A stretch of 64,000 bases of DNA, from assembly GCA_008921705.1 (NCBI GenBank), contig VFFE01009164.1, positions 269,075-333,074 of the forward strand, written 5' to 3'. Position 1 is the first letter of the stretch. Every line of letters starts with the position of its first letter. The position numbers and the translations under genes are program-made. Positions 45,501 through 63,500 of the stretch are shown here, one piece after another. The stretch is from Burhinus oedicnemus. Taxonomy: Eukaryota > Chordata > Aves > Charadriiformes > Burhinidae. The notes under the pieces are model-generated. The model did no database searches. It saw nothing but the letters and a program-made list of their open reading frames with translations, and was not told the DNA's origin.

Positions 45501-48500
45501 TTGTCCATGCAGATGTGTACAACCTGGGGCTGCAATCCTACATTTTCTCCTCTAGCTTTCTCAGAGCTTCGTCTGCAACCCACACCTCAACACCTGCACA
45601 CCTTGCAGAGCTTAGACTGGAGTCCAAACAAAATGTAAAGCATATATAGCCACTGTCTTTGGGACATTTAATTTTTTTAAAAATAATAATTATATGGCTG
45701 ACAATAAATATATACCAGTTCTGTGACCCTCCAGTAAATGAGCTGCGACCATCTGAAAAGTGACAGACATGATTATTCATAGAATCTGGGAAATAATTCA
45801 TGTAAATATTGCATTTTAAATGAAAATCTAAGTGGGTTTTGTTGGTTGGGTTTTTTTAGCTCTGAAAGCTTTGCCTGTTCCTCCCCTCCTCTCTTATCTT
45901 ACCACATAAACCAGAACCATCCATATGCCTCTTCCTTCTCACAAATCCACTAGAAAGATCCACACTGAAAGCCTCTCTATTTTAATGAACCCATCTTTTA
46001 GCCTCACACAGACATGCACATAGAATCATAGAATCGTTTAGGTTGGAAAAGACCATTAAGATCATCTAGTCCAACCATTGACCCTACTCTACCAGGTCTG
46101 CCACTAAACCATGTCTCTAAGCACCACATCTACATGACTTTTAAACACATCTAGGGATGATGACTCAACCACCTCCCTGGGCAGCCTCTTCCAATGTTTG
46201 ATAACTCTTTCAGTGAAAAATTTTTTCCTAATGTCCAGTCCAGCCTAAACCTCCCCAGGCGCAACTTGAACCCGTTTCCTCTTGTCCTATCGCTAGTTAC
46301 TTGGGAGAAGAGATCAGCACCCATCTCACTACAACCTCCTTTCAGGTAGTTGTAAAGAGCAATAAGGTCTCCCCTCAACCTTCTCTCCTCCAGACTAAAC
46401 AGTCCTAATTCCTTCAGCTGCTCCCCATAAGATATGTTCTCCAGACCCCTCACCAGCTTTGTTGCCCTCCTCTGGACACACTCCGGCACCTCAATGTCCC
46501 TCCTGTACTGTGGCGCCCCAAACTGAACACAGTACTCAAGCTGAGGCCTCACCAGGGCTGAGTACAGGGGCACAATCACTTCCCTACTCTGCTGGCCACA
46601 CTGTTCTTGATACAGGCCAAGATGCTGTTGGCCGCCTTGGCTACCTGGGCACACTGCTGGCTCATGTTCAGCCGGCTGTCCACCAGGACCCCCAAATCCT
46701 TTTCTGCCAGGCAGCTTTCCAGCCACTCCTCCCCAAGCCTGTAGCGTTGCCTGGGGTTGTTGTGACCCAAGTGCAGGACCCGGCACTTGGCCTTGTTAAA
46801 CCTCATGCAGTTGGCTTCAGCCCATCGATCCAGTCTGTCCAAATCTCTCTGCAGAGCCTTCCTACCCTCAAGCAGATCAACACTCCCACTTTATTTGGTG
46901 TCATCTACAAACTTACTGAGGGTGCACTCAATCCCCTCGTCCAGGTCATCAATAAAGATATTAAATAAGGCTGGCCCCAAAACTGAGCCCTGAGGAACAC
47001 CGCTTGAGACCTGCCGCCAGCTGGATTTAACGCCATTCACCACAACTCTCTGGGCTCGGCCATCCAGCCAGTTTTTAACCCAGCAAAGAGTACACCTGTC
47101 TAAGCCACAGGCTGCCAGTTTCTCTAGCAGAATGCTGTGGGAGACTGTGTCGAAGGCCTTACTAAAGTCCCAGTAGACAACATCCACAGCCTTTCCTTCA
47201 TCCACCAGGCGGGTCACCTGGTCGTAAAAGGAGATCAGGTTGGTCAAACAGGACCTGCCTTTCATGAACCCATGCTGGCTGGGCCTGATCTCCTGGTTGT
47301 CCTTCACATGCCGCATGAGTGCACTCAGGATGAACCGTTCCATGATCTTTCCTGGCACTGAGGTCATGCTGACAGGCCTATAGTTGCCTGGATCATCTTT
47401 CATGGGATGCCAGTGTGGATCACCGTAATGTGACTTTACTTCTCCGTGGTGTTTCTGAGCATGGGAACCAGCACAATTTGCACTTGGCACAGAAATAAAC
47501 GGGGCCATTTACACATCAGAGCTATCATTACTGGGTTTCTGATGATAACTAAGTGATTCCACTGAAACACAGCTAATTTATAAGACAAACACCTATGTTA
47601 CTGTTCTGTAGACCTTCAAAATTACTTACTAATGTTGGAAGGTCAAACAGACAAGGCCAGACCATTATTCATAGCTACTGACTAGCCATTGCTTTCCACT
47701 TTTTCTTTTTACCACAGAAAAAGACCAAAACTATTAGCAACACTTTTTGAAATATGGCTTTTTTTTCATTTTTGTTACCTGCACACAGGGAGTATGTCAT
47801 TAATCAATATATAAACTGCTTTGTAGAAGTGTCATAGCAGGGAAAGAATACTTTTTATTTGTATCTTTGTATGGATTTCTTCGGTACTTAGAAAGTTACA
47901 TTTAAAGGTCTGAATCTCCAAATGGCATCTTGCATCAGGGAGGGAAAGATTCATCTTCTGCCAAGCCACAGCATGTGTCTGATGTTAAACTTTTAAAATT
48001 CAATAAATCAATAAATACGCAGGTGTATCACAAACACAACTGCATAGCAAAACTCAGACTTCTGATAGTAAAAATGAAGGTCCTGATATATCTGGAGGAT
48101 ATTTATTTAGCAGGACTTGGTCCACATGTGTTTAAGTCACAATACTCTCCTTATACATGAAATAGTACACTACTTAGCAAAATACTCACCTTGCTAGTGA
48201 GATTCGTGCTCGCTGGCCTCCGCTCAGAATGATTCCACCTTCACCCAGCACTGTATAATCTTTGTCTGGGAACTTGGAAATGTCCTGTTAACAAATTTTC
48301 TTTAAGAATCAGACATGTATTTTCCATATCCAAGAAACTCAAGCTACAGACTGGATGGAAGCATACTGTACAACAGTGTACAGGCAGGTTAGACAGAAGT
48401 AAAAGAAAAAAAAAAAGTCCCACAGAGGTTTATTTCTTTCCTTTGTTTATGTAATCAGAAATGGTGATAACAGAAAACATATCATTCTATCGCAGAGAAG

Positions 48501-60500: not shown

Positions 60501-63500
60501 ATTTGATTTTTAACATTATCAGTGACTATTTTGTTTGTTCTTGGTACAACACAATTCACATTTACAATTTTTCTAGTGTTCATAAGCCTTTTATCTGTAT
60601 TGCCTTGAGAAATGCAATTTCTTTGTGTATGTGTATACAATTACTTACAAACTGTTCAGTGTGATCTGAATTTTCCTCTGTAACTGTTAACTCATTTACG
60701 TGAATACATGACCTAAGTATATTTACTATTTCCCTTCATAAAAGAATTGATTGCAATTTCAGTACTGACATGTTATAATTTCAAAGTTAATCAGTAGCTT
60801 GTAGTAACCTTGTCACACATCACTGGCTACTAGATCAAAGAATAGAATTGAGAAATACAAGGAAAAATATGTTACAGAGCCATTCCAGTGGTGTTCTTAT
60901 CACTAATAAACAGTCAACAAAGCTGGGACGTAACAGCCAAAGATCTAAAAATCTGTCTAAGTCACAGTTTCATGCTGTTAAGCCCAGAGATTCTTTGACA
61001 AGTTATAAAATATGCGGTGGGAGTCTCATGAGATTCCTTCTATTATACCAGAATCTGACTGTTCCAAAATGCTGAGTAAGAAGTTTCTGATCTTGCAAAA
61101 GACAGTTGCTTAGTATGTTTTGCACTCTGGTTGTTAAACTACTGTATCTTGTGCCATATAACATAAATGGGAAAAAAAAAACCAAACCCAACCTTATCTA
61201 CTTTTGAAGCAGTATTAAAGAGCTGATGTCAGGCTTCATACCTGTTATAGATAAAATGAGTGTGCAGTCTGTTTCACAGGCCTGACAATTCCTGGAACAG
61301 CCTCAAGCAACATGAGGGAAACCTTAAGAGGGTGTAAGGGAAGGAGAAATTCTTTTTTTTTGCGGGAGGAGAGTGCAAACTTTATTTTTTTAAATCTTTC
61401 AGATAATATAAGTCTTTTATCTTTATTGCCTTGAAAAGTGCAAATTTTTTGTATGTATATACTCACAGAAACTGCTCAGTGTAATCTGAATTTATCTCAG
61501 TTTCCTGAGTAGCTGAATAAAAGAGACACACATACGTCCTTCAGCACTTTCTAGTCGACATTTTTGTATTACGAGTATCAGCTTTAGCAATAGCCATCTG
61601 AGATTATCAGCAACATAGGAAAATTATTCTGTTAATTCAGAAGTACCACAGTAAAATGCACCTCAACATACCAGCTTGAGGACAACCTCATATCCTGAGT
61701 CCCTTGCTCTTTCCTATTGGGATCATTACTGAAAAATAATATAGAAACCTTGTTCATATTGAAATTGATGGGTCCTTTTGCCATTGACTCCAACAAACCA
61801 AAGATTTTACCCCATGCAAGTAAAAGAAATCAGAATATGTTCACCAATAATTTGTTAAACAGGAAAAGTTGCTAAACGTATAACGAATGTTTGTTTTGAC
61901 TTTCATATCTCCTCAGAAAACCCAGTGAAGATGAAAGACTCATCTAATTACTTGCTGTTCAAAGTGAATAAGAGTATCACAGTTCAACTCATTTTATATT
62001 AATGAGGTTAATCGGATGAGATATCCGCAAACTAAATGTATTGATAGTATTTTGGGGTTCTAAAATGATGATTAATCTAAACCACGACTTTTCTCAGAAA
62101 ACCACCAGTTTCAGCAGCACCTCCCCAGGCTTTCACATGGGACTCAGGGAGCCTGTCTGAGTGAGGCACTGTAGGAACCAGAGCACAAGTGACCAGGTAT
62201 ACCACATGTCCAGGGCACGCGTCTTAGTTACCTGGCTAATCCGTGTCAGCCTTGTTAGGTTACTAACCATCTTGTGTTCTATTTTTTCCTTAAAATGCTA
62301 GCCAGGCAGGGAAAAAAAAAAAAAAAAGCCTGCTCTCTAGCCCACTGAGCAATCTGGCTATCTATGCTATGTTCACCAGTTTATTGTTTTAAAGGCAGTG
62401 AGATTCTCACCTTGAGCATTAACTTTAGGTTTCAGTCTGTATTACTGCTGCAAATCTCCTTTCACTTCCTATGGAAAAACAGTTTTGGCATCTAAATTGC
62501 TATTTCCTTATAAAATCTGTATCCTTGTATGTACAAAAAAATATCCAGCAAACTCTTTCGCATATTGTTCACAGAGTAAAAATTCAAATAACTATTGGCC
62601 ATTTTATTGAAACTTACAGTTTATTCATACTTCTTCCTGCAGCCATCATTTTTACAGTGAGCATGGGATAGCAAGAATACAGTAACAATACAGATAACAA
62701 CACAGATAACAACATGGTATTATTCCTTAAAATTGTTAGGACTTCTGTTGAAACAACAGAAATAGAAATACCTTGCCTGCTCCAGTAGATCCAGAAACAG
62801 CTAATAACTGTCCTTTCTCGATCTTGAAATTTATATCCTGAAGAACAGGAGAGGCATGAAGGGGAAAATTACTGAAGAAGAGATTGTTGTCCGTGCTAGG
62901 AGTTTTGCTGCTGTTGTTTTCCTGGCTTGCTTTTACAAACAGCTCTCCAATTCCCTGCAAGATAAACAGCTGTGTATTTGTATGTAAATATAAAAATAAA
63001 TAAAACATGCATATGCAGACATGTATATCATACTAGTTCACATGAAAACATATGAACTTACTTTTCTGATGTTCCTTTTCCTATCTATGACATATCTATT
63101 ATATTCTTAAATATATATTTTTTTTAATGTATGTATTGGACTTGCTTCTAAATGTGTGGACACAAAGAAAATTTGCCTATTATAGAACTGCTTTCCAATG
63201 TTTACACATGCCACAGCCTGATACTGTTTTCAGGCTGGCTTAAATCAGAAATAACTACTTATTACAGGCCTCAACACCTATTAAAAATTCTCTTCCAAAG
63301 TTTCTCAACCGTGGATAATTTGATATCATGCATTAATTACTTGCCATATATTCCTTGCCTGCTGATAGGTGAAGCCAGTTAAAATGAAGGAGTGTAGGCT
63401 GCTCTTCTTAGAGAACACTAAGGCAAATATCAGTGAAAAAGACACACTCTGTGTTTTAATTTAGTTCGGGTAAAAGTACTAACCTCATCCCAAAAAGCTG

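What the first reader, a model, noticed from the sequence alone, without database searches (positions are those of the whole stretch)
48252..62900. NBD1 carries a full set of known stabilising-type substitutions
Aligning exons 10-12 and 14 to human CFTR gives S422P (62898-62900), S434P (62862-62864), S492P (60043-60045), A534P (48267-48269) and I539T (48252-48254), plus F494V (60037-60039) and Q637R (43001-43003, outside this span). Prolines at these four loop sites with I539T are, as I recall, the changes transplanted from thermostable avian CFTR into human F508del NBD1 to rescue it; Q637R and changes at F494 are used as solubilising changes. Finding them together, each confirmed at codon level, suggests a heat-stable NBD1 suited to high avian body temperature, and supports the bird assignment.
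Basis: partly seen in the sequence, partly recalled or inferred. Interest (0 to 1): 0.75.

Follow-up and report, generated by a model that had tools for sequence, protein, structure and literature searches.

The report
Bird CFTR with ancestral stabilising residues
The bird chloride-channel gene CFTR in this window does carry the five residues used in the laboratory to steady the human protein, but four of the five are also found in cool-bodied reptiles and amphibians, so mammals more likely changed than birds adapted to heat.

Summary
The minus strand holds CFTR exons 9-27 and all seven named codons read as stated. The set S422P/S434P/S492P/A534P/I539T is already published from chicken (passages of PMC6689747 and PMC4101494). 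P492, V494, P534, T539 and R637 are in most amphibian and reptile records sampled; P492, V494, P534 and T539 are in 7 of 7 cartilaginous-fish records. P434 is in turtles, alligator, tuatara, many lizards and two amphibians. Axolotl, tailed frog, tuatara, alligator and four of four turtles carry four of the five. Only P422 separates birds from most other sauropsids, and four of 28 bird species lack it. The human residues at 492, 494, 534, 539 and 637 are the unusual ones; NBD1 proline medians are 5 in therian mammals, 7 in platypus, 8-9 elsewhere. Best reading: the avian package is largely inherited, and the mammalian lineage replaced these residues. The full set still marks the gene as avian in this sample (24 of 28 birds and the window; 0 of 107 others). 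Stability was not measured here.

The parts
63484..63576 (-). CFTR exon 9 (human c.1117-1209)
   Evidence: tblastn, splice sites
62772..62954 (-). CFTR exon 10, start of NBD1 with regulatory insertion and Walker A
62898..62900 (-). codon CCT, P at human position 422 (S422P), in the regulatory insertion
62862..62864 (-). codon CCC, P at human position 434 (S434P)
59935..60126 (-). CFTR exon 11, with F508 present
60043..60045 (-). codon CCT, P at human position 492 (S492P)
60037..60039 (-). codon GTC, V at human position 494 (F494V)
48190..48284 (-). CFTR exon 12, with LSGGQ signature
48267..48269 (-). codon CCA, P at human position 534 (A534P)
48252..48254 (-). codon ACA, T at human position 539 (I539T)
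44031..44117 (-). CFTR exon 13
42413..43145 (-). CFTR exon 14, end of NBD1 and most of the R region
43001..43003 (-). codon CGG, R at human position 637 (Q637R)
41166..41294 (-). CFTR exon 15
38336..38373 (-). CFTR exon 16 (38 bases)
36868..37121 (-). CFTR exon 17
35673..35752 (-). CFTR exon 18
30135..30285 (-). CFTR exon 19
28806..29033 (-). CFTR exon 20
26587..26687 (-). CFTR exon 21
18367..18609 (-). CFTR exon 22
16001..16156 (-). CFTR exon 23
7846..7935 (-). CFTR exon 24
4545..4717 (-). CFTR exon 25
4086..4191 (-). CFTR exon 26
2391..2597 (-). CFTR exon 27, coding part to the stop codon

Best explanation
This is an ordinary CFTR gene of a neoavian bird, intact over the exons in the window. 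Its NBD1 carries the published chicken stabiliser set because birds kept old vertebrate residues, not because they gained them for a hot body. By outgroup comparison (inferred, no model-based reconstruction) P492, V494, P534, T539 and R637 go back at least to early tetrapods, and P534 and T539 to jawed vertebrates; P434 goes back at least to early sauropsids. Only P422, in the flexible regulatory insertion, looks like a bird-side change, and it is not universal in birds. The human residues at 492, 494, 534, 539 and 637 are then replacements on the mammalian side, so putting the 'avian' residues into human CFTR is mostly putting ancestral residues back. Inferred mechanism: prolines limit loop flexibility and T539 adds native-state stability, so losing them left mammalian NBD1, the human one above all, close to its folding limit, where loss of F508 is enough to block maturation. 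Shown here: the residues and who carries them. From print: stabilisation or rescue of the human protein by I539T and by I539T with the prolines. Inferred: direction of change, and the cause of mammalian fragility.
For: Per-clade tallies of all 172 fetched records. T539: 42 of 42 bird, 1 of 1 alligator, 4 of 4 turtle, 16 of 16 lepidosaur, 26 of 26 amphibian, 5 of 5 marsupial, 1 of 1 platypus, 1 of 1 coelacanth, 7 of 7 cartilaginous-fish, but 8 of 69 placental records. P492: 26 of 26 amphibian, 7 of 7 cartilaginous-fish, 15 of 16 lepidosaur records. P534: 22 of 26, 7 of 7, 13 of 16. R637: 69 of 69 placental, 5 of 5 marsupial, 26 of 26 amphibian and all sauropsid records; none of the 172 has the human Q. 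In the one-per-species set axolotl, tailed frog, tuatara, alligator, 4 of 4 turtles and four lizards read SPPVPTR at 422/434/492/494/534/539/637, differing from the window only at 422. Prolines in 389-678 (human columns only): medians birds 9, turtles 9, amphibians 9, coelacanth 9, cartilaginous fish 8, alligator 8, lepidosaurs 8, platypus 7, marsupials 5, placentals 5. Zebrafish CFTR in solved chains has P534, T539 and R637. MRP1, another ABCC protein, has P, P and T at the positions matching 492, 534 and 539 (matched by eye). Print, passages only: zebrafish F507del matures better than human F508del, zebrafish CFTR holds A534P and I539T, and changing its T539 to I removed the residual processing (PMC6996396); frog and chicken F508del produce substantially more mature protein than human (PMC6689747); I539T raised the stability of human NBD1, and most ABCC members have T there (PMC2994901).
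Against: P434 is not ancestral on a simple count: 2 of 26 amphibian records, 0 of 6 cartilaginous-fish records with a letter there and not the coelacanth, so it is a sauropsid-level gain or was lost often. Coelacanth and zebrafish have S492, so P492 was lost there or gained more than once. Birds have slightly more NBD1 prolines than other sauropsids (median 9 against 8-9, p 0.005, not corrected for shared ancestry). Over all 52 NBD1 differences the direction is balanced: window residue in the majority of amphibian, coelacanth and cartilaginous-fish rows at 19, human residue at 16, neither at 17 (26 of those 32 rows are amphibians). The tree does not join turtles with alligator and birds, so it is not a clean species tree. 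Mouse CFTR, by PMC6689747, is thermostable as F508del although S422, S492 and A534 are as in human, so these prolines are not the only route to stability. Mammals also move back: Diceros P534; Tenrec, Elephantulus and Hipposideros P422; Tamandua and Carlito P492 with T539. Only one platypus record was seen.
Confidence: 0.86

Rival explanations
1. The five residues are a bird adaptation to 39-43 C body temperature, each gained or kept by selection for a heat-stable NBD1.
For: A review says the higher avian body temperature might necessitate higher stability and that this is largely accomplished by I539T and the four prolines (PMC4101494, passages). The complete set is found only in birds here: 24 of 28 plus the window. 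Chicken CFTR is reported more thermally stable than human (PMC9409475, passages). Birds have slightly more NBD1 prolines than other sauropsids.
Against: Four of the five occur in ectotherms, together in axolotl, tailed frog, tuatara, alligator and four turtles. Four of 28 bird species lack P422. P422 also occurs in one snake, one caecilian and three named placentals, with no heat link that I can see.
Confidence: 0.08
2. Only S422P is a bird-side change that matters for stability: a loop-stiffening proline in the regulatory insertion added to an already stable ancestral NBD1.
For: P422 is in 34 of 38 bird records with a letter there and in 0 of 5 turtle and alligator records. It lies in the regulatory insertion, whose removal increases NBD1 stability (PMC3776845, passages).
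Against: It is absent in both Nothoprocta, Bucco and Neopsephotus, and the stretch around it is variable. Six other NBD1 positions carry a residue shared by at least 90% of birds and absent from the sampled alligator, turtles and lepidosaurs (419, 438, 442, 479, 672, 674), so 422 has no special claim.
Confidence: 0.2
3. The residues are largely neutral for stability in their own backgrounds; their rescue of human F508del reflects the human context only, and mammals drifted without consequence.
For: Lineages swap these residues repeatedly. Mouse F508del is thermostable with three of the four proline sites as in human (PMC6689747, passages).
Against: Changing T539 to I in zebrafish F507del removed residual processing, so at least one site matters in a non-human background (PMC6996396, passages).
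Confidence: 0.15

Closest known systems
Chicken CFTR I539T plus 4P set (Aleksandrov et al. 2012, J Mol Biol; original not held, seen only as cited in PMC6689747, PMC4101494 and PMC7052731)
   Same: All five residues identical, and V494 and R637 too.
   Different: Another bird: it differs from chicken at 16 sites in residues 389-678. No stability data for this species.
2PT-NBD1 (human S492P/A534P/I539T construct; PMC6572788, passages)
   Same: The three residues are those of the window.
   Different: An engineered human domain. By the same three residues are in 7 of 7 cartilaginous-fish records and in most amphibian and reptile records, so they are not specifically avian.
Zebrafish CFTR with natural A534P and I539T (PMC6996396, passages)
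   Same: Shares P534, T539 and R637.
   Different: S492 and T494; position 434 falls beside a two-residue gap and was not scored. Cool-bodied animal.

Membership tests
CFTR (ABCC7) ortholog | CFTR exon order with an open frame from exon 9 to the stop | tested here: met
   19 exons, 1112 residues, GT-AG at the internal boundaries, stop ending at 2391
CFTR (ABCC7) ortholog | R region between NBD1 and the second membrane domain | tested here: met
   Exon 14 matches the R region of chicken and human CFTR chains
CFTR (ABCC7) ortholog | Closest relatives are CFTR, not other ABCC proteins | tested here: met
   First 40 of the 120 listed rows (of 3758 hits) are bird CFTR at 87-96% identity; tree of 136 rows
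CFTR (ABCC7) ortholog | First membrane domain (exons 1-8) | not tested
   Not in the window as far as the tblastn shows; exon 9 ends the match near the window's end
Published avian stabiliser set (I539T + S422P, S434P, S492P, A534P) | All five residues present | tested here: met
   Codons read directly
Published avian stabiliser set (I539T + S422P, S434P, S492P, A534P) | Residues arose in birds | tested here: not met
   Four of five present together in alligator, four turtles, tuatara, four lizards and two amphibians
Published avian stabiliser set (I539T + S422P, S434P, S492P, A534P) | Raised melting temperature of this protein | not testable with these tools
   Needs purified NBD1
Solubilising pair F494N/Q637R | Asn at 494 and Arg at 637 | tested here: not met
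   Window has V494 and R637; the published change seen is F494N (PMC3776845, passages)

The most novel reading that the evidence does not exclude
The instability of human NBD1, on which the commonest cystic fibrosis mutation depends, is a derived mammalian condition built in steps: F494 and A534 before the platypus split, S492 in therians, I539 within placentals, and Q637 on the human side. The laboratory stabilisers found by copying birds would then mostly be ancestral reversions, and reptile or amphibian CFTR should tolerate F508 loss about as well as chicken CFTR does.
Probability: 0.6. Interest if true: 0.5.

Novelty: already known. Interest (0 to 1): 0.3.

Why it matters
The residue set is known from chicken, so the window adds another bird. 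What is useful is the correction of direction: a published review suggests a link to bird body heat, while the wider sample points to change in mammals. That alters which natural CFTRs are worth testing for stability and makes a clear prediction about F508 deletion in cool-bodied animals. Parts are already in print: position 539 varies between I and T by species and is T in most ABCC members (PMC2994901), and zebrafish carries P534 and T539 (PMC6996396).

Tried and rejected
Chance excess of prolines: no clear excess, 4 of 52 NBD1 differences go to proline against 7 of 183 in the rest. Wrong frame or numbering slip: rejected by direct codon reading and by alignment to a solved human chain. Broken gene: rejected for exons 9-27. 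Heat adaptation of the whole set: rejected by the clade tallies. Repeats over 60 bases in the window: none found.

Print: ten paper searches. None of the listed titles or abstract starts says that the set is ancestral. Several listings were capped (20 of 22, 20 of 25, 15 of 46, 20 of 653, 12 of 23), only open-licence papers are held, the 2012 source paper is not held, and I saw passages of ten papers at most, so this is weak evidence of absence. PMC3413703, on CFTR evolution, had no passage for stability, proline, 539, bird, chicken or 534; PMC7350234 had none for Q637R, F494N or F429S.

Rows left out before counts: from then on, 38 of 174 sequences were dropped as second isoforms, truncated or duplicate records. 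Among them were the only records of Nyctiprogne (which has all five), Heliangelus, Turdus, Scyliorhinus, Lutra, Callithrix, Catagonus, Mustela putorius and the Equus taxa, and two unnamed records. One search counts all 172 fetched records, isoforms included, so some species count more than once there. Each record stands for a 90%-identity cluster whose other members were not read. Only the best 120 hits of each of the three protein searches were listed, so ray-finned fish are represented by zebrafish alone and lungfish not at all. In one search five of 29 bird rows were left out of the proline counts for gaps. The search for bird-only residues does not list 422, because one snake also has P there.
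Full report
What is there. The minus strand of the window carries CFTR from exon 9 to the stop codon in exon 27. A tblastn with human CFTR found the exons except exon 16, which a splice-site scan found. Joined, the 19 exons give 1112 residues with one terminal stop and GT-AG at the internal boundaries. All seven codons named in the finding read as stated. The human-to-proline differences in residues 389-678 are exactly the four named.

Which organism. The first 40 rows of the protein search are birds, led by golden eagle at 96% over the full query. 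Over shared columns two parrots and a crane score slightly higher, 96.6-96.8%, on shorter overlaps (1021, 1021 and 908 columns against 1102 for the eagle). The tree puts the window among neoavian birds. I cannot name the species; the search of the window's own genome did not complete.

Already known. Passages of PMC6689747 and PMC4101494 say that Aleksandrov and colleagues identified I539T and S422P, S434P, S492P and A534P in chicken CFTR and that these restored human F508del CFTR. The second, a review, adds that the higher body temperature of birds might necessitate the stability. The original paper was not available. Q637R and F494N are described as solubilising changes in PMC3776845 (passages); the window has V, not N, at 494.

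Testing the heat reading. I fetched 172 CFTR records by three searches and tallied the sites by clade. T539 is in 42 of 42 bird, 26 of 26 amphibian, 16 of 16 lepidosaur, 4 of 4 turtle, 1 of 1 alligator, 5 of 5 marsupial, 1 of 1 platypus, 1 of 1 coelacanth and 7 of 7 cartilaginous-fish records, and in 8 of 69 placental records; I539 is in 56 of 69 placentals. P492 is in 41 of 41 bird records with a letter, 26 of 26 amphibians, 15 of 16 lepidosaurs, 4 of 4 turtles, the alligator, 7 of 7 cartilaginous fish, the platypus and 5 of 69 placentals, but not in the 5 marsupials or the coelacanth. P534 is in 42 of 42 birds, 22 of 26 amphibians, 13 of 16 lepidosaurs, 4 of 4 turtles, the alligator, the coelacanth, 7 of 7 cartilaginous fish and 1 of 69 placentals, and in no marsupial or platypus record. 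V494 is in 21 of 26 amphibians and 7 of 7 cartilaginous fish and in 0 of 75 mammals. R637 is in every one of the 172 records except 6 cartilaginous-fish records with K; none has the human Q. P434 is in 38 of 38 bird records with a letter, 4 of 4 turtles, the alligator, 9 of 16 lepidosaurs, 2 of 26 amphibians and no mammal, coelacanth or cartilaginous fish.

So the only one of the five that sets birds apart from most other sauropsids is P422: 34 of 38 bird records with a letter, 0 of 5 turtle and alligator records, 1 of 16 lepidosaurs, 1 of 25 amphibians with a letter, 3 of 66 placentals with a letter. In the one-per-species set of 136 rows, axolotl, the tailed frog, tuatara, alligator, 4 of 4 turtles and four lizards differ from the window at 422 alone among the seven sites; a snake and a caecilian have P422 but not P434. 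That axolotl, tailed frog and tuatara live cool is general knowledge, not a call. The complete five are in 24 of 28 bird species and the window, and in 0 of 107 other rows, so the combination does support the bird assignment, through P422.

Direction of change. Prolines in residues 389-678, counted in human columns, have medians of 9 in birds (24 of 29 rows used), turtles, amphibians and the coelacanth, 8 in cartilaginous fish, alligator and lepidosaurs, 7 in platypus and 5 in marsupials and placentals. Zebrafish has P534, T539 and R637 but S492. MRP1, in the same ABCC group, has P, P and T where CFTR has 492, 534 and 539 (matched by eye). Over all 52 NBD1 differences between human and window, the window residue is the majority one in amphibian, coelacanth and cartilaginous-fish rows at 19, the human residue at 16 and neither at 17. 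General divergence is thus balanced, but of the seven named sites five fall on the human side (492, 494, 534, 539, 637) and two do not (422, 434). Against my reading, birds exceed other sauropsids slightly in proline count (p 0.005 without correction for ancestry). The tree recovers birds, turtles, lepidosaurs, marsupials, placentals and amphibians as groups (support 0.977 or more) but does not join turtles with alligator and birds.

How it works. From print, I539T raised the thermal and cellular stability of human NBD1 (PMC2994901, passages), and human NBD1 with S492P, A534P and I539T is used as a stabilised domain (PMC6572788, passages). Those three residues are the ones shared by amphibians, reptiles and cartilaginous fish here. 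In zebrafish the F507del protein matured to 43% of wild type against 16% for human F508del, and T539I removed the residual processing (PMC6996396, passages). Frog and chicken F508del are reported to give substantially more mature protein than human (PMC6689747, passages). Mouse F508del is thermostable although three of the four proline sites are as in human (same paper), so the prolines are not the only route. My inference is that the early tetrapod NBD1 had a stability margin that mammals lost in steps, and that birds kept it and added P422.

Novelty. The residue set is published from chicken. That zebrafish carries two of the residues is published too. I saw no statement that the set as a whole is ancestral in the listings of the ten paper searches, but the held library is partial and several listings were capped.

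Verdict. Observation confirmed, bird assignment supported, heat adaptation not supported for four of five sites, stability of this protein untested.

Noticed in passing
window 44031-44117 (exon 13): Window has H at human position 577, shortly after the Walker B region; 19 of 24 birds with a letter there also have H, the other 5 Y.
   Followed up: partly
window 48190-48284 (exon 12): T547I next to the LSGGQ signature: I in 18 of 28 birds, T in 10, namely the ostrich, emu, tinamou and goose rows.
   Followed up: partly
human positions 470, 637, 647, 667 (exons 11 and 14): The residues in the recalled human row (V, Q, C, H) are in 0 of 49 other placental rows, a small cluster of human-side differences in and after NBD1.
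   Followed up: no
window 51368-51449: Perfect ATAGA tandem array, 16.4 copies, in the intron between exons 11 and 12.
   Followed up: no
window 58642-58768: 27-base tandem array, 4.7 copies at 82% match, in the intron between exons 11 and 12.
   Followed up: no
human positions 419, 438, 442, 479, 672, 674 (exons 10, 11, 14): Residues shared by at least 90% of birds and absent from the sampled alligator, turtles and lepidosaurs; candidates for bird-side change besides 422.
   Followed up: partly
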